In this document: one piece after another, positions 3,469-15,494 of the stretch | How positions within the stretch are numbered: position 1 is the first letter of the stretch | How the letters are laid out: each line of letters opens with the position of its first letter | Source of the DNA: Lachnospiraceae bacterium | GTDB lineage: Bacteria > Bacillota > Clostridia > Lachnospirales > Lachnospiraceae | NCBI GenBank assembly: GCA_022794255.1 | Contig: JAAWEL010000065.1 | Span: forward strand, 1 to 64,000 | DNA: 64,000 nucleotides | Direction: 5' to 3' | Made by a program: the position numbers and the translations under genes | Notes under the pieces: model-generated | The model's input: only the letters and a program-made list of their open reading frames with translations | What the model was told of the DNA's origin: nothing | The model's database searches: none

Positions 3469-6144
3469 ATGGCGGTCAGAAAGACAGAATTATATAGCTC
3501 TTTATGGGCAAGCTGCGATGCGCTCCGGGGAGGAATGGATGCATCTCAGTATAAGGATTACATACTGACGCTGTTGTTTATGAAGTATGTGACAGACAAA
3601 TATAAGGGGCAGAAGTATGGGGATTTGATCGTTTTCGATAAAGCCAATGATACAAATCCGGATCCGGAAAAAAGAACAGGATGTTCGTTTGATGACTTTG
3701 TTGCATTGAAAAACAGCAAGAATATCGGGGAGGGAATTGATAAGGTTATTGCCCGTCTGGCAGAAGAGAACGAGGGCTTAAAGGGAGTTATCGATGTTGC
3801 GCATTTTAATGACGAGGCGAAGATCGGTAAGGGACAGGAAATGGTGGATAAGCTGACAAAGCTGATCGCTATATTCCAGAGGCCTGAACTGGATTTTTCT
3901 AAGAATAAGATCGAAGGGGACGATATCATTGGAGATGCCTATGAATATCTGATGCGGAATTTTGCTACAGAAAGTGGAAAGAGTAAAGGACAATTTTACA
4001 CACCTGCAGAGGTTTCCCGCATTCTGGCAAAGGTTATTGGGATAGACAAGTGTAAGGACAAAAATGCGACTATATGTGATCCGGCCTGTGGCAGTGGCTC
4101 CTTGCTTATCCGGGCTCTTGCGGAAGCGCCGTTTGAGATATCTGGTTATGGACAGGAAAAGGAAGGCTCCACGGCAGGTCTTGCGAAAATGAATGCAGTT
4201 TTACATAACAAGGCTACAGTCAGAATTATGACAGGTAATACCTTTTCCGATCCCTTGTTTCTGAAAAAAGAGGATTCCTCTGAGTTGGAAAGATTTGATT
4301 ACATAGTTGCCAATCCCCCCTTTTCTCTGAAAAACTGGTCTGACGGTCTTAAAGAATATGGACGATTTACGGGTTATGGGGACAGGCCGCCGGAAAAAAA
4401 TGGTGATTATGCATGGCTGCTGCATATTTTAAAGACTTTGAAATCTACAGGAAAAGCAGCGGTTATTCTGCCCCACGGAGTTTTATTCCGTGGTAACGCG
4501 GAGGAAACCATTCGCAGGGCGATTGTGGACAGAGGATGGATTAAGGGAATTATCAGCCTTCCGGCCAATCTTTTTTATGGTACGGGAATCCCGGCATGTA
4601 TTCTGATTATCGATAAAGAAGGGGCGGATAACAGAGCTGGCATCTTTATGATAGATGCAAGCAGGGGGTTTATTAAGGATGGGAATAAAAATCGGTTGCG
4701 GGAACAGGATATTTATAGAATTGTTTCTACTTTTAACGAACAGCTGCAGACAGATCCAAAGTATGCACGGTTTGTTCCCAACAAGGAGATAAAGGAAAAA
4801 AACAACTATAATCTGAATATTTCCAGGTATATTGATTCTTCTGATTCTGAGGATATACAGAGTATTTATGCTCATTTACATGGAGGGATACCGGCTGAAG
4901 ATATTGCTGCGCTTCAGAAGTTCTGGGAGGCATTCCCAAGTTTGAAGAGTCAGTTGCTTGAAAGTTTTGGGGATGGGTATTATAAGCTGGCTGTGGATGA
5001 GGGAATTATCCGTAAAACAGCATATTCCAACAGGGATTTTATTTCCTTTGGGGAAAGGATGGAGGAGGCATTTGCAGGCTGGAAGAATTATGCAGATATA
5101 AGACTGAGAAATCTGAAATCCGGAATGGTGGCAAAAAAGCTGATTGCGGAACTTTCAGAGGCGATTCTTGGAGAATTTGGGCAGCTTTTGCTGGTTGACA
5201 AATACGATGTTTATCAAGTTCTTCTGACATATTGGAATGAAACTCTTGGGGATGATGTTTCTCTGATTATCTCTGCAAAGGAAGGATACGGCCTGGCACG
5301 GGAAACAGAAAACATCATGAAGGAGACGAAAAAAACGGATTCTGACGGCAATCTGGAATGGAAGGTATCCGGATGGGAAGGAAAGCTGATTCCTAAATCA
5401 ATTATCATAGAAAATCTGTTTCCAAAGGAGAAGAAGGCAATCGATAATGTTGCTGCGATAGCAGCGGAAACGGATGCAAGACTGATGTCATTGGTGGAAG
5501 AGTCTGAGGAAGAATCTGTGCTCAAATCAGTTGCAGAGGGAGGAAAGATCAGGAGCAGGGATATACAGGGGAAAATAGGTGAGATCATGAGCCATGTCCA
5601 TACTCCGCTTATTGATGCGCTTCTGGAGCTCCAGAGGATTTATCCTACAATCAAAAAGAAGGCCCAATATACAACCTATATCAAGGAGCATACCTTGTGT
5701 GAGGCAGCGTATACGAAGGACAGAACCATTTCCAGAGCATCCATTGCCTATGCATTGGATTTTGCCCGTCAGGATGCACCGGTTCCGGAAGCTTATGCAG
5801 AGGATCATAGGGAGTTGAAAATAGCGCTGGAATTGGCTGTAAAGTCTGAGGAGACAGTAAAGCTTATGAAAGAAAGGGAGAAGGAGCTGGATAAAAAGGC
5901 CTGCAAACGATACTCTACTTTGACAGATGAAGAGATTATGGATTTGCTGGTGAATAAGAAATGGTATGATACCATTGGCCTTGGTATCCAGGAGTTGTAT
6001 GCATCCATTTCTCATCAGCTGGCAGATCGTATTCTTGAACTGTCTAAGCGGTATGAAAATCCATTGCCGGATTTGATGAGACAGACCAGTGCGTGTGAGG
6101 AAAAAGTGAAACAGCATCTGGAAAGGATGGGATTTACATGGTAA
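3469..6144 (+). CDS. hsdM: Type I restriction-modification system, DNA adenine methyltransferase subunit with long C-terminal extension
   Basis: HsdM transfers a methyl group from S-adenosylmethionine to adenine in the target set by HsdS, and is also needed for restriction. The N-terminal helical HsdM domain covers roughly residues 1-130. The SAM-binding motif DPACGSGS is near residue 203 and the catalytic N6-adenine motif NPPF near 281. Typical HsdM proteins are about 500 residues. This one is 891, with about 400 extra residues after the methyltransferase fold (from about 480) that are largely helical, with no motif I can name. Start ATG has GGGAG upstream. The stop overlaps the hsdS start by seven bases, so the two are translationally coupled. 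Confidence 0.9.
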   Translation: MAVRKTELYSSLWASCDALRGGMDASQYKDYILTLLFMKYVTDKYKGQKYGDLIVFDKANDTNPDPEKRTGCSFDDFVALKNSKNIGEGIDKVIARLAEENEGLKGVIDVAHFNDEAKIGKGQEMVDKLTKLIAIFQRPELDFSKNKIEGDDIIGDAYEYLMRNFATESGKSKGQFYTPAEVSRILAKVIGIDKCKDKNATICDPACGSGSLLIRALAEAPFEISGYGQEKEGSTAGLAKMNAVLHNKATVRIMTGNTFSDPLFLKKEDSSELERFDYIVANPPFSLKNWSDGLKEYGRFTGYGDRPPEKNGDYAWLLHILKTLKSTGKAAVILPHGVLFRGNAEETIRRAIVDRGWIKGIISLPANLFYGTGIPACILIIDKEGADNRAGIFMIDASRGFIKDGNKNRLREQDIYRIVSTFNEQLQTDPKYARFVPNKEIKEKNNYNLNISRYIDSSDSEDIQSIYAHLHGGIPAEDIAALQKFWEAFPSLKSQLLESFGDGYYKLAVDEGIIRKTAYSNRDFISFGERMEEAFAGWKNYADIRLRNLKSGMVAKKLIAELSEAILGEFGQLLLVDKYDVYQVLLTYWNETLGDDVSLIISAKEGYGLARETENIMKETKKTDSDGNLEWKVSGWEGKLIPKSIIIENLFPKEKKAIDNVAAIAAETDARLMSLVEESEEESVLKSVAEGGKIRSRDIQGKIGEIMSHVHTPLIDALLELQRIYPTIKKKAQYTTYIKEHTLCEAAYTKDRTISRASIAYALDFARQDAPVPEAYAEDHRELKIALELAVKSEETVKLMKEREKELDKKACKRYSTLTDEEIMDLLVNKKWYDTIGLGIQELYASISHQLADRILELSKRYENPLPDLMRQTSACEEKVKQHLERMGFTW

Positions 6145-7412
6145 GGGCAGGAAAACATACAAAGATAGGGGAGATTCCGGCAGACTGGGAGATACAGTCC
6201 TTTGAGGAAACCTTTCGTATTTTGCCCAATAATACCTTGCCCCGGGCAGATTTAAACAGCCGGGGCGGGATGGTTCGCAATGTCCATTATGGGGACATAC
6301 TGACGGGATTTCCGGAGGTACTTGATTGTGAAAGATATCAGCTTCCCTATCTGAACGACTTATCATTATTGACTTCATCTGCGCAGCTGTTGCAGGACGG
6401 GGATGTAATTTTAGCGGACACAGCAGAGGATGAAACCGTGGGAAAGGCAACAGAGGTGTATGGGCTTGGAGATGGTAAATTGGTAGCAGGTTTGCATACA
6501 ATTCCCTGCCGGGTAAAAAAGGGGAAATTTGTCCCCAGATGGCTGGGATATTACATGAATTCCAAAACCTATCATGATCAGCTTCTGCCTTTTATTACAG
6601 GGATTAAGGTTTCTTCCATCTCTAAGAGTGCCGTTTCTGACACACAGATACTGGTACCTTCGGTGGAAGAACAGCAGGCGGTTGTAGAGGTGCTTTCTGA
6701 CCTGGATAAGGTTATCCAGGTATTGGAACAGGATATTGATAAATTGAAGGATCTGAAACAGGCGAAGCTGCAATCTATGTTTCCGCAGATAGGGGAATGC
6801 GTTCCGAGCGTTCGTCTGTCTGGGTTTTCAGAAGCGTGGGAGAGAAGAAAGCTAGGAGAGATAGCGGATGTGTATGATGGGGTACATCAAACTCCTGAAT
6901 ATGCAGAAAACGGAGTGATGTTTGTTTCGGTAGAAAATATTGGAACTTTAAGGTCGGAAAAATATATATCAGAAGAGGCGTTTCAGCGAGATTATAAAAT
7001 ATACCCTGAAAAAGGAGATATACTCATGACGAGAATTGGCGATGTGGGAACTCCGAATGTAGTTGAAGGTATCGAAAAACTGGCATTTTATGTAAGCCTT
7101 GCCTTGTTGAAACCAAGACAGGTTGATTCTTATTTTTTATGCAATGCAATCCGGTCTCCATTATTTCAAAAAGGGTTAAAAGAAAGGACATTGATCACAG
7201 CAATACCACAGAAGATTAATAAAGATGAGATAGGCGAAGTGGATATAATGCTGCCATTGGAAAAATCTGAACAACAGCAAATAGGGGAACATTTCCGCAG
7301 TCTGGACCATCTCATCACTCTTCACCAGCGTAAACTGACAAAATACATGGATATCAAGCAGGGAATGATGGACCGTCTGTTTACAGGAAAAATCCGCTGC
7401 AAAAGCAGATGA
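6138..7412 (+). CDS. hsdS: Type I restriction-modification system, specificity subunit
   Basis: A 424-residue HsdS with the usual two target-recognition domains. The first half (GEIPADWEIQ start) ends in the conserved spacer helix around residues 180-215 (EEQQAVVEVLSDLDKVI). The second half (AWERRKLGEIADV) ends in the matching C-terminal helix (EKSEQQQIGEHFRSLD). The two halves set the two parts of a split DNA target, which cannot be read from sequence. Coupled to hsdM by a seven-base overlap. I saw no second hsdS, recombinase or inverted repeats that would suggest phase-variable specificity. Confidence 0.92.
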   Translation: MVRAGKHTKIGEIPADWEIQSFEETFRILPNNTLPRADLNSRGGMVRNVHYGDILTGFPEVLDCERYQLPYLNDLSLLTSSAQLLQDGDVILADTAEDETVGKATEVYGLGDGKLVAGLHTIPCRVKKGKFVPRWLGYYMNSKTYHDQLLPFITGIKVSSISKSAVSDTQILVPSVEEQQAVVEVLSDLDKVIQVLEQDIDKLKDLKQAKLQSMFPQIGECVPSVRLSGFSEAWERRKLGEIADVYDGVHQTPEYAENGVMFVSVENIGTLRSEKYISEEAFQRDYKIYPEKGDILMTRIGDVGTPNVVEGIEKLAFYVSLALLKPRQVDSYFLCNAIRSPLFQKGLKERTLITAIPQKINKDEIGEVDIMLPLEKSEQQQIGEHFRSLDHLITLHQRKLTKYMDIKQGMMDRLFTGKIRCKSR

Positions 7413-7455
7413 GAAAGCTTTCGGGAGTACATCATAAAGGAGGAGATACGCGCAT

Positions 7456-10400
7456 ATGAGTATTGGGGAAAGTGAGAGAAGCACTCAGAACCGGGTGGTA
7501 GATTTCTTTAAGAATAAGAGTATTCTTGATTACGAATATCTTGGCAATCAGAAAGGTTCTGTCAACAAAAATATCCGGGAGAACCGGCTCCGTGCGTATC
7601 TGCAGTTATCCGGATACAGCCAGAAGCTGATTGACGGGGCAACAGCTCAGCTGGTAAAGGCTGCCAATGATATGAACCATGGTCTTGGTGAAGCAAACCG
7701 ACAGGTGTATTTGCTGCTGAAATACGGAGCTAAAGTACAAGAGATGCCGGAAGGTGCGCCCAGGACCGTTTATTTTCTTGATGTGGAACAGCCTGCCAAT
7801 AATGATTTTGCCATTGCCGAGGAGGTTACAGTTGTAGAGAGACAAAAGAAGCGGCCGGATCTAGTGATTTATGTGAATGGTATAGCTATGGCTGTGATAG
7901 AACTGAAAAAGTGCAGTGTTGCTGTCTCCAATGGCATCCGCCAAAATCTGACAAACCAGAAGGATTCCTTTATTGCCCCATTCTTTACCACAGTGCAGTT
8001 TTGTATGGCAGGGAATGAGGCTGAGGGGCTTCGGTATGGAACCATTCTGACAGAAGAAAAATATTATATGGAATGGAGGCCAGATGGATTTAAGGAAAAT
8101 GAGGAGGAGAGGGATCCGGAGGATGTCCGCATCACAGCTTTTTGTGAACATCTGGACAGTCTGCTTCTGCAGCAGATTTATCAGATGTTTGATAAGAAAC
8201 GTTTTATTGACCTGATTGAGAATTTTGTCATCTATGATAAAGGGAGAAAAAAGGTATGTCGCTATAACCAGTATTATGGGATCAAACGGGCCCAGAACCG
8301 GCTGGCAAAAAGGCAGGGAGGCATTATCTGGCACACCCAGGGAAGTGGAAAAACTCTGACAATGGTCTGGCTGTCCAAATGGATTCGGGAACATGGAAGT
8401 AAAGATTCCCGGGTCCTGATTGTGACAGACAGAGGGGAACTGGATGAGCAGATTGAAAATACATTTCGCGGGGTAGATGAAAAGATTCGGCGGACAAAAA
8501 GCGGAGAGGAGCTTCTGCGCAGATTAAATACATTGGATGATACTCTGATGTGCTCCCTGATACATAAATTCGGGAGACGAGAAGGAGAAGCAACGGAGTC
8601 AGACTATGATAAATATATTGATGAGCTAAGAAAAGGGCTTCCTGCAGATTTTCAGGCAAAGGGGTCTTTATATGTGTTTGTGGACGAGTGCCACAGAACC
8701 CAGTCCGGTAAGCTGCACGCTGCCATGAAGGCGATTATGCCAAAGGCGATTTTTATTGGATTTACCGGCACTCCTCTGCTTAAAAAGGATAAAAAGACTA
8801 GCATTGAGGTGTTTAACACCTATATCCACAGCTATAAATATAAGGAAGCAGTCAGGGATGGAGTGGTTCTGGATTTACGCTATGAATACAGAGACATTCC
8901 CCAGGAGCTGTCTGTACATGACAGAATCGATCAATGGTTTGAGGTGAAAACGCGGATCCTTTCCCCCAGAGCCAAGGCAAAGCTCAAAGAAAAATGGGCC
9001 AGTATGCAGAAAATATACAGTTCTCGTTCCAGATTAGAGAGAGTTGCCTGGGACATTATTCAGGATTTTGACTTAAAGCCCCGTCTGATGGATGACAATG
9101 GCAATGCAATTCTTGTTGCAGATGATATCTATACTGCCTGCAAATATTATGAAATTTTTTGGCAGAGAGGGTTTAAAAAATGTGCTATTATTTCCTCCTA
9201 TACGCCTCAGCCAGGGGATCTGCGGACCGATACGGTAAGTGCAGATGCGGACACAGAGGGATTTGAAAAATACGATACTTATCTGAAAATGCTGGGCTTG
9301 GATCTGGATAATCTTCCGGAAAAGCTTTCAATTCAGAAGCGGATAGAGGAATTTGAGGCAGATGTAAAGAATAAGTTCATTCACCAACCCGCCAACATGA
9401 AATTACTTATTGTGGTGGACAAGCTGTTGACTGGATTTGATGCACCGCCCTGTACCTATTTGTATATTGACAGGAAAATGCAGGATCACGGATTGTTCCA
9501 GGCAATCTGTCGAGTGAACAGGCTGGACGGAGATACCAAGAAGTTTGGATACATTGTAGACTACAAACAGCTTTTTGGAAAGCTAAAGGATGCGATGGAT
9601 AAATATACTTCCGGAGCATTTGAAGGTTATGATCCGGAGGATGTGGATGGCCTGATGAAGGATCGCAGTAAAGAGGCCATTCATCATTTTAAAGATATCT
9701 ATGAGAATTTGGAAGCATTATGCGAGGGTGTGGAAATGCCAAGGGAAGCTCTGCAGTATATGCACTATTTCTGTGGAGAATCTGCCATGAGTGAAGACCA
9801 GGATGCAGTCTATGTCCGCTTGAGGGAAAAGCTGTACCGGCTTGTCAGCAATTTGGTGCGCGCCTTTGCAGAGGCAAAGCAATATCTCATGGATACATGT
9901 ATGGCAGGGGAGCTGAAGAACTATGAAGAAAAGGTCTGCTTTTATATTGAACTAAAGCAGGCAATCGGAAATAAGAGCGGAGATTTCCTGGATTATAAAG
10001 CATATGAACCAGACATGCGAAAATTGATTGATAATTATATTGTGGCATCTGACAGCATCAAAATAGGAGAGTTTGATGATCTGACATTGCTTGATTTTGT
10101 CAGTGACCAGGGCAGGGCAATGACAGAGAGTGGCGCCTCCAATAGCCAGAGAGAAGGAGCTGCAGAAGCCATAGAAAATAATATCCGCCGCAAGATGGTT
10201 GAAAGGGCAGTGGTGAATCCCAGATATTATGAGAAAATATCCGTTATTCTGGAAAAGCTGATAGAAGAACGGCGAAGGGGTGTCAGGGAATATAAGGATC
10301 TGCTGGACCGGTATATTGAGCTTGTGAGAAAACTGGAGTGCCCGAAGGAAAATAAAGATTATCCGGAAAGCATTCGCAGGAGTAAAGCTATGCAGGCTCT

Positions 10401-10593
10401 ATATGACAATACGGGGGAGAATGAAGAGCTGGCAATTCGGCTTCATCAGGCAGTGATGGACAGCAAGATGAGCGGATTCCGGGGGGATACCATTAAGGAG
10501 CGCAGGATACAGGGAGCGATCTTTGCCATTCTCAATGATGATGAAGAGGTTGAGCGCATTTTCAAAATTATTGAGAAGCAGGAGGAATACTGA
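7456..10593 (+). CDS. hsdR: Type I restriction-modification system, restriction and translocase subunit
   Basis: HsdR translocates DNA using ATP and cuts far from the unmethylated target. Of 1045 residues, the N-terminal nuclease domain carries the PD-(D/E)xK signature (RPDLVIY, then VIELKK at about 135-155). The SF2 motor follows: HTQGSGKT (Walker A, about 292), VDECHR (about 411), GFTGTP (about 435) and QAICRVNR (about 682). The C-terminal helical region contacts the methylase core. An AGGAGG sequence precedes the start, and the gap to hsdS is 43 bases. All motifs look intact, so the system should be able to restrict. Confidence 0.93.
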   Translation: MSIGESERSTQNRVVDFFKNKSILDYEYLGNQKGSVNKNIRENRLRAYLQLSGYSQKLIDGATAQLVKAANDMNHGLGEANRQVYLLLKYGAKVQEMPEGAPRTVYFLDVEQPANNDFAIAEEVTVVERQKKRPDLVIYVNGIAMAVIELKKCSVAVSNGIRQNLTNQKDSFIAPFFTTVQFCMAGNEAEGLRYGTILTEEKYYMEWRPDGFKENEEERDPEDVRITAFCEHLDSLLLQQIYQMFDKKRFIDLIENFVIYDKGRKKVCRYNQYYGIKRAQNRLAKRQGGIIWHTQGSGKTLTMVWLSKWIREHGSKDSRVLIVTDRGELDEQIENTFRGVDEKIRRTKSGEELLRRLNTLDDTLMCSLIHKFGRREGEATESDYDKYIDELRKGLPADFQAKGSLYVFVDECHRTQSGKLHAAMKAIMPKAIFIGFTGTPLLKKDKKTSIEVFNTYIHSYKYKEAVRDGVVLDLRYEYRDIPQELSVHDRIDQWFEVKTRILSPRAKAKLKEKWASMQKIYSSRSRLERVAWDIIQDFDLKPRLMDDNGNAILVADDIYTACKYYEIFWQRGFKKCAIISSYTPQPGDLRTDTVSADADTEGFEKYDTYLKMLGLDLDNLPEKLSIQKRIEEFEADVKNKFIHQPANMKLLIVVDKLLTGFDAPPCTYLYIDRKMQDHGLFQAICRVNRLDGDTKKFGYIVDYKQLFGKLKDAMDKYTSGAFEGYDPEDVDGLMKDRSKEAIHHFKDIYENLEALCEGVEMPREALQYMHYFCGESAMSEDQDAVYVRLREKLYRLVSNLVRAFAEAKQYLMDTCMAGELKNYEEKVCFYIELKQAIGNKSGDFLDYKAYEPDMRKLIDNYIVASDSIKIGEFDDLTLLDFVSDQGRAMTESGASNSQREGAAEAIENNIRRKMVERAVVNPRYYEKISVILEKLIEERRRGVREYKDLLDRYIELVRKLECPKENKDYPESIRRSKAMQALYDNTGENEELAIRLHQAVMDSKMSGFRGDTIKERRIQGAIFAILNDDEEVERIFKIIEKQEEY

Positions 10594-10596
10594 AGG

Positions 10597-11316
10597 ATGG
10601 AAATTATAGTTTCAGGAATTCCCATAGATATTCAGAAAAAGGATATTAAAAACATGCATCTTCAGGTAAAACCACCAGATGGGCATGTGGTGATCTCTGC
10701 ACCGCTTTCCATGGATGATAAGGCAATTGAAATCTATGCCAGAACGAATGTAAGCTGGATAAAAAGGCAGATTCAGAAATTCAGCGATCAGCCCCGCAGT
10801 GGGAAGCGGCAGTATGTCAGCGGAGAGACCATGTATATCTGGGGCAGGCAGTATTTTCTGTCTTTTGTGCCAAGTTCCCACAGGAACCATTTTGTTATTC
10901 AGGGAAACCGGGTGACTCTTTCTATGAGGGAGGAGAGTTCTGTCCGCCAGCGTGAAAGCTTTGTCCGGGAACAGTATCGGATTCTGCTAAAAACAGAGCT
11001 CCATCGTCTGCTTCCGAAATGGGAGAAGATTACAGGCTTACATTGTGAGTCTTGGCAGACGAAGTACATGATAACCCGTTGGGGAACCTGCAATCCGGAC
11101 AAAAGAAAGCTTTGGTTTAATCTCCAGCTGGCCCAGAAGCCGGTGGAATGTCTGGAATATGTTATTTTACATGAACTGATTCATCTGCGTGAACGGACTC
11201 ATAATAGGACTTTTGTTTCCTGGATGGATTTTTACATGAAGGATTGGCGGGAGGTGCAAAGAACACTGGGGGAGGCGCGGCTGGATTATTATAGTGCTGG
11301 AGGGGATAAGAAATGA
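10597..11316 (+). CDS. YgjP-type zinc metallopeptidase of the hsd operon
   Basis: A 239-residue protein of the YgjP / DUF45 (WLM-like) family. The zinc-binding motif HELIHLRERTH is near residue 192, and the upstream TRWGTCN segment (about 164-170) is typical of the family. Its start lies three bases after the hsdR stop, so it is part of the restriction operon. YgjP-type genes are often found next to type I hsdR genes; a role in turning over the restriction subunit has been considered but I cannot show it here. No signal peptide, so it acts in the cytoplasm. Confidence 0.82.
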   Translation: MEIIVSGIPIDIQKKDIKNMHLQVKPPDGHVVISAPLSMDDKAIEIYARTNVSWIKRQIQKFSDQPRSGKRQYVSGETMYIWGRQYFLSFVPSSHRNHFVIQGNRVTLSMREESSVRQRESFVREQYRILLKTELHRLLPKWEKITGLHCESWQTKYMITRWGTCNPDKRKLWFNLQLAQKPVECLEYVILHELIHLRERTHNRTFVSWMDFYMKDWREVQRTLGEARLDYYSAGGDKK

Positions 11317-11407: not shown

Positions 11408-12532
11408 ATGAACAGGGAACAAATAAAAATGGAACAGATATCTATTTTTGATTATTTAAACGAAGAACAATCAGGAAATAAGCTGACCCAGGCAGAGATC
11501 GACCGGCTTCATCCCAGGATGGTATCTTTGTTTAGCGGATGCGGAGGCCTGGATTTAGGCTTTAAGCAGGCAGGTTATGATATTGTATATGCAAATGATT
11601 TTGATATAGATGCCCAGCGGGTATATAAGGCAAACTTTGGGGAAATAGATGAAAGAAATATCCTGGATGTTTTGGAGGAGGAGGTACCTGCATGTGATAT
11701 ATTGACAGGCGGATTTCCATGTCAGCCGTTTTCCAATGCAGGAAACCGAAGAGGGGTTAAGGATTCAAGAGGAAATTTATATAAAGAGTGTCTTAGAATG
11801 ATCCAGTCGAAAGCTCCAAAGGTTGTTGTGTTGGAAAATGTCAGAGGATTATTATCCACCAAAGATGAAAACGGAGGATTACTGATTGAGACAATCGTAA
11901 AAAATCTTGAAGAGACAGGAACCGGATATAATGTAAATTATCAGTTGGTCAATGCCAGTGACTATGGGGTGCCGCAAAATCGTGTAAGAGTTGTTCTGGT
12001 TGCGTTCAGGAAAGATCTGGGAAAGACATTTGTATTCCCTCCAAAGCAACCAAAAGAGAAACTAAACATTGGCAGTTTGCTGGATGTGCCGGAGGATATT
12101 CCCAATCAGGTAGATTGGCCATTTTCCCCACAGGTTTTAAATCTGATAAAATATATTCCGGAGGGCGGATCATGGAAAAGTATACCCTATGAGTATCTTC
12201 CAGACCGGTTCAGAAGAATTGCTGACAATATGAAGCGTTATCATGCCCCTAATATGTACCGCCGCTTTGCCAGGACAGAGATTGCGGGAACGATCACCGC
12301 AGCCGCTCAGCCTGAAAACTGCGGGATTATCCATCCCACGGAAAACCGGCGATATAATATCAGGGAAATTGCAAGAATACAAACATTTCCAGATGATTTT
12401 ATTTTCTTTACCGAAGACCCAAAATCCGTAACTGGCATGTATAAGGTAATAGGAAATGCAGTGCCTCCTGTGCTCGCAAAAGTTATTGGTTGCGAAATCA
12501 AAGCACAGTTGGGCTTACAATTAACGGACTAA
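11408..12532 (+). CDS. DNA cytosine-5 methyltransferase
   Basis: A C5-cytosine methyltransferase of 374 residues. It shows SAM-binding motif I (SLFSGCGGLDLG, about 38-49), the catalytic GGFPCQPFS (Cys near 103), ENVRG (about 144), QNRVRV (about 191) and the closing GNAVPP (about 349). The first 30 residues are an extension before motif I. The target recognition region between about 200 and 330 is short. A four-base gap leads to a McrB-like gene and then a McrC-like gene. This arrangement resembles LlaJI-type restriction systems, in which the methyltransferase protects sites cut by McrB/McrC-like subunits. Confidence 0.92.
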   Translation: MNREQIKMEQISIFDYLNEEQSGNKLTQAEIDRLHPRMVSLFSGCGGLDLGFKQAGYDIVYANDFDIDAQRVYKANFGEIDERNILDVLEEEVPACDILTGGFPCQPFSNAGNRRGVKDSRGNLYKECLRMIQSKAPKVVVLENVRGLLSTKDENGGLLIETIVKNLEETGTGYNVNYQLVNASDYGVPQNRVRVVLVAFRKDLGKTFVFPPKQPKEKLNIGSLLDVPEDIPNQVDWPFSPQVLNLIKYIPEGGSWKSIPYEYLPDRFRRIADNMKRYHAPNMYRRFARTEIAGTITAAAQPENCGIIHPTENRRYNIREIARIQTFPDDFIFFTEDPKSVTGMYKVIGNAVPPVLAKVIGCEIKAQLGLQLTD

Positions 12533-12535
12533 TAT

Positions 12536-14224
12536 ATGGATGGGGGTGACTTTTTGAAGCGGATTTATGTTGCAAAGGCAAGTATTTTATCATGCATTGA
12601 ATATTTTCAGAAATTAAATATTACTTCTGGAGAACAGTTGGGATTATTTTTCTTTTTTAAAAGTATTGGTTTTGATAATAAGGAATATCATTCATTTCCA
12701 AAGGTCGGAAGTATTTCTTTGGAAGACAGGAAAGAGTACCTGAAAAGTATGTATATGCTTTCCGCATTATATGATTATGATACAGAAAGCGGAGAAAAGA
12801 AATGCTGTTTATTTCCTTTTTCGATTGTTGACGAAATAGGAAAGAATCATTTATTTAATCCAGGAACAGCATTTAAAGGGCTCTTAAGCCGGATGCGCGA
12901 TACGGTTGACAATACTTTAATCGATGATTCTAAGTTTCTGCGTAAAGATGAAGCAAATCCGGATAATTTTAAGTTTCCTAGTAACTATATACAGATCATA
13001 CGCTCTAATTTTTTAAAGAATCAAAAAATATCAATTGTTTATTTGGCTGCATGGTATTTTAGATTCAGAGGGGTTAAGGCTCTTGACAGTTGGCTGAAAG
13101 GCCACATAACAAGTGATTCGTATAAGGAGTATACCCGGGTGTGCGTAAAGATGCTGAAACGTGAGCTTAAGCTGACAGAAGAAGAATTGGAGACGCTGTT
13201 TTATTATGATGAGGAGGAAATAATCTGTTTTGCAGAAGATAAAATAAAAGGGACGGAATTAAGAGCCGAATTGCATTTTATGAAAGATTATATTCCTGAA
13301 ATTACAAGACTTCCCAAAGGAGGAAACGATTATATGAACCCGATTAAGGATATTGAGTTACCAAAAGTGGAAGAACTCGCCCAGCCTGTGGGCAATAATA
13401 TTACAGCAGCGAACTTGAAGGATCTGCTACTTGCGGCAAAGCAGGTGATTTTGTACGGTGCTCCCGGCACGAGTAAATCCCATTTGACAAATCAACTGAA
13501 AAAGGATTTTACCGGGTGTGTGCTGGTGCAGTTTCATGCCAATTCCACATATGAGCAGTTTATTGGGGGGATATCGGTAAATGATAAGGGGGATTTTGTT
13601 TCAAAACCAGGAGTGTTTTTGACTTTTTGCGAAAAGGCGAGAATGGATGCGGACCCTCAAAGTAAATATTTATTCATCATAGATGAAATTAACAGAGGAA
13701 ATGTTTCTAAAATCTTTGGAGAGACAATCCTTACATTGGACAGAGAATATACGGCAGATTTGGCAGAGGAAATACAGTATAGGGGCAGGGGCATTAAAAA
13801 GTTTTCTATACCGGAAAATGTGTATATCATTGCAACAATGAATTCAGCAGACCGGAGTATTGCTCAGATCGATTATGCAATCCGAAGGCGTTTTGCTTTT
13901 GTTAAATTTTATCCGAATTATGAATTGATCGCTTCCATCTCTGACCTTTCAAAAATGCCGCAGATAAGACCGGATGTATTGCTGCGAAATCTCAATAAAG
14001 CAATACTTAATGTTCTGAAAGATGAAAATATGTTGCTGGGGCACGCATATTTTATTCCCAAGTGGGCTTTATCAGGCGAAAAAATTCGATGGACCCCAGA
14101 AGTTTTGATGAAGCTTTTTAACTATTATATTATTCCGATAATCGAAGAGTATACATATGGTAATTCCAGATATCTGATTAATATTTTAGGGCCAAATTTG
14201 TCCAAAAGAATAGGGGGATATTGA
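12536..14224 (+). CDS. mcrB: McrB-like AAA+ NTPase of a restriction system, probable 3' frameshift
   Basis: Of 562 residues, the C-terminal half is the McrB AAA+ motor: Walker A GAPGTSKS near residue 307, Walker B FIIDEINRGN near 380, and MNSADRS near 436, typical of McrB. The N-terminal 280 residues, which should recognise DNA, match no domain I know. The ATG at 12536 has no good ribosome site; a TTG at 12554 behind GGGGGTGA is an alternative start. The frame ends at 14224 right after five G (14213-14217). With four G it would run on to TAA 14265-14267 and end SKRIGDIDEFIDEIKNQFHLD-like, a sensible helical tail. This suggests a one-base slip, natural or a sequencing error. Confidence 0.85.
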   Translation: MDGGDFLKRIYVAKASILSCIEYFQKLNITSGEQLGLFFFFKSIGFDNKEYHSFPKVGSISLEDRKEYLKSMYMLSALYDYDTESGEKKCCLFPFSIVDEIGKNHLFNPGTAFKGLLSRMRDTVDNTLIDDSKFLRKDEANPDNFKFPSNYIQIIRSNFLKNQKISIVYLAAWYFRFRGVKALDSWLKGHITSDSYKEYTRVCVKMLKRELKLTEEELETLFYYDEEEIICFAEDKIKGTELRAELHFMKDYIPEITRLPKGGNDYMNPIKDIELPKVEELAQPVGNNITAANLKDLLLAAKQVILYGAPGTSKSHLTNQLKKDFTGCVLVQFHANSTYEQFIGGISVNDKGDFVSKPGVFLTFCEKARMDADPQSKYLFIIDEINRGNVSKIFGETILTLDREYTADLAEEIQYRGRGIKKFSIPENVYIIATMNSADRSIAQIDYAIRRRFAFVKFYPNYELIASISDLSKMPQIRPDVLLRNLNKAILNVLKDENMLLGHAYFIPKWALSGEKIRWTPEVLMKLFNYYIIPIIEEYTYGNSRYLINILGPNLSKRIGGY

Positions 14225-14282
14225 TGAGTTTATTGATGAAATAAAGAATCAGTTTCATCTGGATTAAGATAGGAGGGAACCT

Positions 14283-15494
14283 ATGGAATCCGAAGTGATT
14301 CATATTCCACAAGGAGGCCTTCTTGGCCTGTTGAATGGTGAGAAAGAGCTTCTTAAAAAAGTTTTTGTGGATCGTGGAATAGGCCTGGATTGTATTGACT
14401 TTCAGCAAAATATAGTCAAATTTCCACAAGCATATGTGGGATATATTAATTTTCCCATGAGAAGAATTGTTATTGATCCAAAACATGAAGGGATCGATTT
14501 AAGGCATATTTTGCGGGTTTATTATTTTTTATATGCGACAGAGATTTCCGATTTAGATGATCCGATTTATGATGTGGACAGAGGCAGCGCTTATGATTTG
14601 GTTGAGCTGTTTATTTCTGAGTTGGATAAAGTGGCTAAAAAGGGTTTGCCAGTTGAATATAAAGAGAGCCGTGAGAATCTTCAATATCTGAGAGGAAATA
14701 TCAATGCAGTACAGACTCTTTTAAATAAGAGGCTGGGCAGAAGAGAGCCGTTTGATTGTTCTTTTGATGAATTGTCAAAGGATATTCCCATAAATCAGAT
14801 TTTGTATAAAGCCTATAATAAAGCTGTCAGGATCATGGATACTGGTAAGGCTGCTTTGCTGAAAAGAGATTTTGCGGGAGTATCGGAGATTTATGATATT
14901 CCGGATGTAAAATTAAATATAAATACCATGTACTGCAAGAAGGCAATCGCTTTAGCACATATGATTTTGAATGATTTATCTGTTTCTGACTACGGAAGCC
15001 AGACATATGGACAAAATGTTCTAATTAATTTTGATAAAATTTTTGAATATTTTGTGAAAAAGATATTGATTTCATACTCAGGAGACCATAATTTTTCTTA
15101 TTGGGATGAAGAAAAGCGGTACGCGGTTTGTATGGACTCGGATAATAATGAATATTTAAAATCGTATATTCCGGATATGCTTTATCTGTGCAAAGAACAG
15201 GGCAATCTGGTTCGTGCCTTCTGTATTCTTGACATGAAAAATAAGACATCAAAGCCATTTACCAATGCAGATGTGTATCAGATGTTTTTTTATGCCAATC
15301 AGTTGCAAAGCAGGAAGGTGATTCTTTGCTATCCATCTTGTGAGGACAGGAATAATGCCAGGTTAAGGTTTGACAATGAGAGTTTTTCTTTGAAGAAAAT
15401 TGATGGTATTTACATTAACCTAGCAGGGGATACTTCGGCGGAATTTAAGGAGAATATAAATCGGTTTATAAACAAGGTAATGGCAGTTTTATAA
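14283..15494 (+). CDS. mcrC: McrC-like nuclease subunit
   Basis: A 403-residue McrC family protein, the nuclease partner that docks on the McrB ring. The PD-(D/E)xK site is visible as IPDML near residue 296 and LDMKNK near 315, similar to the PD and DxK signature of McrC. A strong AGGAGG ribosome site precedes the ATG. It follows the McrB-like gene by 15 to 58 bases, depending on the frameshift. It is the last gene of the accessory block; a terminator on the other strand separates it from glgB. The gene is AT-rich compared with the following chromosome. Confidence 0.85.
   Translation: MESEVIHIPQGGLLGLLNGEKELLKKVFVDRGIGLDCIDFQQNIVKFPQAYVGYINFPMRRIVIDPKHEGIDLRHILRVYYFLYATEISDLDDPIYDVDRGSAYDLVELFISELDKVAKKGLPVEYKESRENLQYLRGNINAVQTLLNKRLGRREPFDCSFDELSKDIPINQILYKAYNKAVRIMDTGKAALLKRDFAGVSEIYDIPDVKLNINTMYCKKAIALAHMILNDLSVSDYGSQTYGQNVLINFDKIFEYFVKKILISYSGDHNFSYWDEEKRYAVCMDSDNNEYLKSYIPDMLYLCKEQGNLVRAFCILDMKNKTSKPFTNADVYQMFFYANQLQSRKVILCYPSCEDRNNARLRFDNESFSLKKIDGIYINLAGDTSAEFKENINRFINKVMAVL

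What the first reader, a model, noticed from the sequence alone, without database searches (positions are those of the whole stretch)
11408..15494. Cytosine methyltransferase fused in an operon with McrB- and McrC-like genes: a LlaJI-type system
A complete C5-methyltransferase is followed after 4 bases by a McrB-like AAA+ gene and then a McrC-like nuclease. A classical McrBC cuts methylated cytosine and would attack its own methyltransferase's product. LlaJI of Lactococcus solves this with McrB/McrC-like subunits that cut unmethylated sites and are blocked by methylation. The N-terminal 280 residues of the McrB-like protein match no recognition domain I know, so the target may be new. Only one methyltransferase is present, whereas LlaJI has two.
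Basis: partly seen in the sequence, partly recalled or inferred. Interest (0 to 1): 0.7.

Follow-up and report, generated by a model that had tools for sequence, protein, structure and literature searches.

The report
McrBC-like restriction cassette with one methyltransferase
Three neighbouring genes look like a DNA-defence system in which one enzyme marks the cell's own DNA and a motor-driven nuclease related to McrBC probably cuts unmarked DNA; the general kind is already known, but the part that should read the target sequence belongs to a small protein family for which I found no description.

Summary
In detail: an intact C5-methyltransferase, a McrB-like AAA+ protein and a McrC-like nuclease lie together (11408-15494). 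The first ~290 residues of McrB match no Pfam family and no convincing solved protein. I found 11 relatives of this N-domain; all 12 loci, window included, carry a C5-methyltransferase and a McrC. Of 27 other McrB loci from the same bacterial family, 1 has even a weak C5-methyltransferase match within about 6 kb. This supports a McrBC-like restriction-modification system that cuts unmethylated DNA, not Type IV McrBC. It works like LlaJI but is not a LlaJI member: PF09563 is absent from the genome, there is one methyltransferase instead of two, and its GTPases branch apart from two PF09563-linked ones. The one-methyltransferase layout is published (PcaI), and methyltransferase-linked McrB branches were noted in a 2024 census. 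What may be new is the N-domain: an AlphaFold model of moderate confidence is mostly helical, without a structural match among the 43 chains compared. The window's McrB lacks the C-terminal tail that all 11 relatives keep, so this copy's activity is unproven.

The parts
11408..12532 (+). C5-cytosine DNA methyltransferase, 374 aa, motifs I, IV (PCQ), VI (ENV), VIII (QxRxR), IX and X present
   Evidence: PF00145 275 bits, TIGR00675 241 bits against cut-off 100.65; motifs
12554..13425 (+). N-terminal domain of the McrB-like protein (~290 aa), presumed target-recognition domain; more probable start TTG 12554 (ATG 12536 is the other candidate)
   Evidence: no Pfam match over cut-off in 7 of 7 members scanned; shared by 11 relatives; AlphaFold model pLDDT 69
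13426..14224 (+). McrB-like AAA+ domain: Walker A GAPGTSKS, Walker B IDEINR, NxxD motif MNSADR, RRRF; C-terminal tail missing compared with relatives
   Evidence: AAA_5 70.9 bits; E. coli McrB structures match at residues 295-542, E about 1e-37; motifs; tail
14283..15494 (+). McrC-like nuclease subunit, 403 aa, PD...DxK (YIPDML ... ILDMKNK)
   Evidence: PF10117 118.6 bits over residues 49-351; motif

Best explanation
A restriction-modification system built on an McrBC motor nuclease. The C5-MTase methylates one cytosine in a short target, probably palindromic because one MTase is enough. The N-domain of the McrB-like protein binds the same target only when it is unmethylated. The AAA+ domains form a GTP-driven ring that moves along DNA, and the McrC-like PD-(D/E)xK subunit makes the cut, so incoming phage or plasmid DNA is cut and host DNA is spared. 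Shown here: gene content, catalytic motifs, constant linkage in the loci found, separateness from the sampled canonical McrB and PF09563-linked GTPases. Inferred: binding of unmethylated DNA, the target, GTP use and translocation, cleavage, and that this particular copy works despite its truncated McrB tail.
For: 12 of 12 loci with this N-domain have a C5-MTase and McrC; in 11 the MTase gene lies 0-72 bases from the next cassette gene (McrB or McrC) and in one it is split off by an IS1182 element. Control: 27 McrB loci of the window's own bacterial family without this N-domain, +-6 kb where the contig allows, 1 of 27 with a weak 60-aa C5-MTase match. Reciprocal: among the rows listed, the plasmid and phage MTases closest to the window's are those of the cassette (57.1, 56.3 and 63.0%); the next listed are 40.5% (plasmids, 40 rows of at least 5000 records) and 34.9% (phages, 25 of 1625 records). 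Catalytic motifs are present in the 11 loci scripted (window and 10 relatives; L045 not scripted), except that L033 missed the strict NxxD pattern; it reads MNSSDR in the alignment. Two PADLOC models called Type II restriction enzyme match the McrB-like protein, in its AAA+ part (E 1e-13 and 1e-12). Published precedents restrict unmethylated DNA: LlaJI (PMC1459862) and PcaI (PMC8989522).
Against: No activity, methylation or target data. The 27 controls form one clade in the tree and are only 27 of the 77 other AAA+ matches, so the contrast is between clades, not many independent events; the control looked for C5-MTases only, by tblastn with three of them. Three of the 12 loci (L035, L036, L049) are near copies. 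The window McrB lacks the tail kept by 11 of 11 relatives. The N-domain has no recognised DNA-binding fold.
Confidence: 0.8

Rival explanations
1. A true Type IV McrBC that cuts modified DNA (another modification or context), with a MTase next door for regulation or for marking in a different context.
For: McrB and McrC parts are clearly McrBC-related; the prototypical McrBC branch often lies next to type I R-M genes, as here (type I genes at 3469-10593; association stated in PMC11090510, passages).
Against: The N-domain matches neither DUF3578 nor any other Pfam family in 7 of 7 members scanned and is mostly helical in the model, unlike the known modified-base readers (recalled to be beta-rich). 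A C5-MTase is present in 12 of 12 loci (and those cited there) and its closest listed plasmid and phage relatives lie in the cassette.
Confidence: 0.1
2. A degenerate cassette in this genome: the family is a working R-M system, but this copy keeps only the MTase activity because McrB is frameshifted at its 3' end. (This can be true together with the best explanation for the family.)
For: The window McrB ends roughly 15-20 residues early compared with 11 of 11 relatives.
Against: N-domain frame, AAA+ motifs and McrC are intact; the tail lies beyond the part matched by E. coli McrB structures (residues 295-542); the genome is a 90-contig assembly, so a base-calling error is possible.
Confidence: 0.2
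3. A member of the LlaJI family proper with one MTase lost.
For: Same overall idea: McrB- and McrC-like subunits plus MTase. Of two PF09563 loci examined, one (L080) has an N6-type and a C5-MTase gene before R1 and R2; the other (L079) shows no MTase among the ORFs of 200 aa or more in 12 kb, so the MTase number varies there too.
Against: PF09563 absent from the own genome and the nuclease is PF10117; no meaningful blastp match to either R2; GTPases separate with strong support, though only two PF09563-linked rows were in the tree and they sit on long branches; one search shows one C5-MTase place in each of the 11 relatives' loci.
Confidence: 0.05

Closest known systems
PcaI of Pectobacterium carotovorum RC5297 (PMC8989522; passages and section 22 seen)
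   Same: One C5-MTase plus McrB-like and McrC-like genes; reported to restrict unmethylated DNA; McrB similarity confined to the C-terminal GTPase part.
   Different: M.PcaI is Dcm-like and methylates CCNGG; [quoted passage not shown] I did not have PcaI sequences, so kinship of the N-domains is untested.
LlaJI, with LlaI and BsuMI (PMC1459862: abstract, sections 5 and 11; PMC2614495: passages); also the LlaJI-like four-gene cluster of Clostridium cellulovorans (PMC11779793: passages)
   Same: McrB/McrC-like subunits with MTases, cutting unmethylated DNA; N-terminal half of R1 as specificity part.
   Different: Two MTases (for LlaJI, an asymmetric site, GACGC); R2 family PF09563; R1 N-domain described as a B3 domain (PMC12707154 passage).
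Type IV McrBC of E. coli
   Same: AAA+ GTPase and PF10117-type nuclease subunits.
   Different: No cognate MTase; DUF3578 methylcytosine reader at the N-terminus (PMC11090510 passage), which is not found here.
MTase-associated McrB branches of the 2024 McrBC census (PMC11090510; passages seen)
   Same: NxxD McrB GTPases linked to predicted DNA methyltransferases; probably includes this cassette (inference).
   Different: The passages seen only note the association and defer it to a later paper; I saw no N-domain or mechanism there.

Membership tests
LlaJI | R2 nuclease subunit of family RE_LlaJI (PF09563) | tested here: not met
   0 matches in the own genome (86.8% complete); window nuclease is PF10117
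LlaJI | Two MTases | tested here: not met
   Only one C5-MTase in the operon; the other MTase nearby is HsdM of a separate type I operon
LlaJI | McrB-like GTPase subunit R1 | tested here: met
   AAA_5 and McrB structures match; but the branch is separate from two PF09563-linked R1 proteins
LlaJI | B3 fold in the N-terminal domain of R1 | tested here: inconclusive
LlaJI | Cuts unmethylated DNA, blocked by methylation | not testable with these tools
   Needs restriction tests
Type IV McrBC | N-terminal modified-base reader (DUF3578, EVE/YTH and the like) | tested here: not met
   No such Pfam match in 7 of 7 members scanned, of 12 known; a structural match was sought only among 43 chains
Type IV McrBC | McrB GTPase plus McrC nuclease | tested here: met
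   (NCBIfam equivalogs below cut-off)
Type IV McrBC | No cognate MTase | tested here: not met
   C5-MTase in the cassette in 12 of 12 loci
PcaI-like single-MTase McrBC R-M | One C5-MTase plus McrB-like and McrC-like genes | tested here: met
PcaI-like single-MTase McrBC R-M | Homology to PcaIA/PcaIB, including their N-terminal and extension domains | not tested
   I had no PcaI sequences
CoCoNuT | NxD GTPase motif and coiled-coil fusions | tested here: not met
   Motif is MNSADR, i.e. NxxD; coiled coils were not searched for

The most novel reading that the evidence does not exclude
The ~290-residue N-domain is a new, mostly helical class of sequence-specific, methylation-blocked DNA reader fused to a GTP-driven McrB ring, carried with a dedicated MTase on phages and plasmids of Bacillota: a third independent way, besides LlaJI's B3 domain and PcaI's own domain, in which an McrBC motor was turned from methyl-dependent to methyl-blocked.
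Probability: 0.35. Interest if true: 0.55.

Novelty: new variant of a known kind. Interest (0 to 1): 0.36.

Why it matters
It shows an McrBC-type motor paired with a dedicated methyltransferase in a compact form that also occurs on phage and plasmid records, with a recognition domain that I could not assign. If the N-domain is a new reader of unmethylated sequence, it would make testable how a methyl-dependent enzyme becomes methyl-blocked, a continuum raised in print (PMC3874153, passage). Practically it predicts a restriction barrier, and the MTase that would lift it, in [Clostridium] citroniae and relatives.

Tried and rejected
LlaJI membership: tested by PF09563, MTase number, blastp and a GTPase tree, and rejected. 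Classical Type IV McrBC: rejected as first choice because of the constant MTase and the lack of a known reader.

Distribution: profile hits in G1158 (E 3e-4 to 6.5e-4) look by eye like serine recombinases or their tails and were dropped from counts. L048 is the same contig as L031; L002 and L036, and L003 and L037, are the same loci. Scans of genome contigs with the window N-domain found nothing. Scans of viral contigs: window McrB gave L031, alignments gave L031 again and L049, and five divergent single members gave none.

Target site: no computed clue. The solved HaeIII and HhaI methyltransferases match best at residues 37-212 of the window MTase, before its presumed specificity region (the second stretch of the HaeIII match was not shown). 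Empty-site comparison with the one same-genus genome failed because gene order differs on both sides of the one shared gene.

Literature: PubMed Central searches for LlaJI (24 papers listed), BsuMI+McrB (24, 2 papers), McrB/McrC/methyltransferase/LlaI (63, 25 of 50 listed), CoCoNuT/McrBC/DNA methyltransferase (64, 10 of 325 listed), McrBC-like with type II or single methyltransferase (108, 2 papers) and a six-term search from 2019 (109, 1 paper). No listing that I saw named this N-domain; most subscription papers are not held and supplements were not read.
Full report
Observation. The three genes exist as described. The MTase (11408-12532) is a C5 enzyme (PF00145, 275 bits) with motifs I, IV, VI, VIII, IX and X; the second protein carries an AAA_5 domain at residues 304-453 with Walker A, Walker B and the McrB NxxD motif (MNSADR); the third is a PF10117 McrC with PD...DxK. 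The McrB and McrC equivalogs of NCBIfam match below their cut-offs. Two PADLOC models named Type II restriction enzyme match the AAA+ part (E 1.1e-13 and 1.3e-12), so McrB-like Type II subunits are already catalogued. E. coli McrB structures match the AAA+ part only (residues 295-542, E about 1e-37); McrC has no PDB match by sequence up to E 1.

Surroundings. Upstream on the same strand lie a type I R-M operon (HsdM 3469-6144, HsdS 6138-7412, HsdR 7456-10593) and a YgjP-like metallopeptidase (10597-11316). Downstream on the other strand comes a glycogen-branching-enzyme-like gene (identified by eye). G+C in 2-kb steps is 0.37-0.44 over the first 16 kb and 0.42-0.50 beyond. This looks like a defence island (inference). 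The window's family is not named by any search; the nearest relative, [Clostridium] citroniae (L044), is labelled Lachnospiraceae.

Relatives. The whole McrB protein matched in 73 of 299 family genomes (80 places), but only two places besides the window's own reach into the N-domain. With profile A4 the N-domain is in 3 of 397 family genomes, own included, and in 1 of 398 phylum genomes, the own one, after three recombinase-like hits in one genome were dropped. A single-sequence search of 391 class genomes found only the own. Other members came from plasmids (S. epidermidis NZ_CP121512 and F. sanfranciscensis pLS2: the 2 of 318 matching records that cover 80% of the protein), phages (Ruminococcus phage NatCom_2329, 1 of 50,697 records), viral contigs (L031, L049) and genome contigs ([Clostridium] citroniae, an uncultured MAG, Terrisporobacter petrolearius, Peptoniphilus ovalis). 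N-domain identity to the window runs from 22 to 70%.

Linkage. All 12 loci have MTase, McrB and McrC together. Of the 11 scripted (window and 10 relatives), nine have the order MTase-McrB-McrC and two (L033, L037) McrB-McrC-MTase; the twelfth, L045, has MTase-McrB-McrC. In L032 an IS1182 transposase gene lies between MTase and McrB. In L037, the member with the most distant N-domain (22%), the MTase is also of another type (31.7% identity to the window MTase), as expected if MTase and N-domain share a target (inference). Control: the 27 McrB loci of the same family that one search had given as loci and that lack this N-domain (27 of 77 such places) were fetched with +-6 kb, cut at contig ends (two are under 4 kb). 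Three C5-MTases as tblastn queries found 1 weak match (60 aa, 30%, E 1.4e-5) about 5 kb away in one locus. These controls form one clade and other MTase types were not sought, which weakens the contrast. Reciprocally, in the listed plasmid and phage rows the only close MTases are those of the cassette (56-63%); the next listed are 40.5% and 34.9% (40 rows of at least 5000 and 25 of 1625).

Tree. On the AAA+ domain of 41 proteins the 12 cassette members form one side of a branch (95/88; 94% of 200 bootstrap trees), the 27 controls another (100/97), and the two PF09563-linked R1 proteins (L079, L080) lie apart from both (100/99). The root is for drawing only; L080, L037, L079 and L033 have long branches and their exact places are unsure, as the tool warns.

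PF09563 loci. In 199 phylum genomes PF09563 matched in 2. L080 has an N6-type and a C5-MTase gene before R1 and R2; L079 shows no MTase among the ORFs of 200 aa or more in 12 kb. The window N-domain and McrC have no meaningful blastp match to either system's proteins; the AAA+ part does.

Mechanism. LlaJI (PMC1459862: abstract, sections 5 and 11) and PcaI (PMC8989522: passages and section 22) are reported to restrict unmethylated DNA with McrB/McrC-like subunits; PcaI does so with one C5-MTase at CCNGG. For LlaJI no cleavage was seen in vitro. A 2008 paper describes LlaI, BsuMI and LlaJI as McrBC-related type II systems with a pair of MTases (PMC2614495, passages). The 2024 census notes McrB branches linked to MTases and defers them to a later paper (PMC11090510, passages). 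The simplest reading is therefore a methylation-blocked McrBC-like R-M system with a probably palindromic target.

Caveat on this copy. The McrB tail kept by 11 of 11 relatives is missing in the window because of a late frameshift. Whether it is real or an assembly error, and whether it matters, is open.

Verdict. Observation confirmed; interpretation right in likely function, wrong in family label. New variant of a known kind, interest 0.36.

Noticed in passing
window 3469-11316: A complete type I R-M operon (HsdM, HsdS, HsdR) followed directly by a YgjP-like metallopeptidase gene lies just upstream on the same strand.
   Followed up: partly
window 14178-14280: The McrB gene ends early compared with 11 of 11 relatives; a matching tail is readable in another frame just downstream.
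   Followed up: partly
L031 4393-5997: The relative's MTase carries a ~190-residue N-terminal extension (ASCH-like by eye, no Pfam match at 0.001, phrog_3136 at 1e-9); in L002 the MTase is fused to a Cro/C1-type HTH (HTH_26), and L033, L035 and L049 have similar N-termini, suggesting self-regulation.
   Followed up: partly
L035 4938-9103: The cassette sits in the genome record of Ruminococcus phage NatCom_2329 and its N-domain is 96% identical to that in a genome of the window's own bacterial family (L002/L036): a phage-carried R-M cassette.
   Followed up: partly
L046 4383-4875: In Terrisporobacter petrolearius the cassette begins 142 bases after the tmRNA gene, a common integration site (recalled).
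   Followed up: partly
L032 4012-6010: An IS1182-family transposase gene lies between the MTase and McrB genes on an S. epidermidis plasmid.
   Followed up: no
L031 8956-13058: Next to the cassette lies a two-gene module (494 aa protein plus 872 aa helicase-like protein) that may be a defence system.
   Followed up: partly
L044 69-3738: The cassette in [Clostridium] citroniae lies beside what looks by eye like type I-C CRISPR-Cas genes and a repeat array.
   Followed up: no
L037 1448-4466: In the most distant member the MTase is of a different type and is followed by an AIPR-like protein (by eye).
   Followed up: no
L079 5273-8552: A PF09563 (RE_LlaJI) nuclease with its McrB-like partner shows no MTase gene among the ORFs of 200 aa or more in 12 kb, unlike the textbook LlaJI layout.
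   Followed up: no
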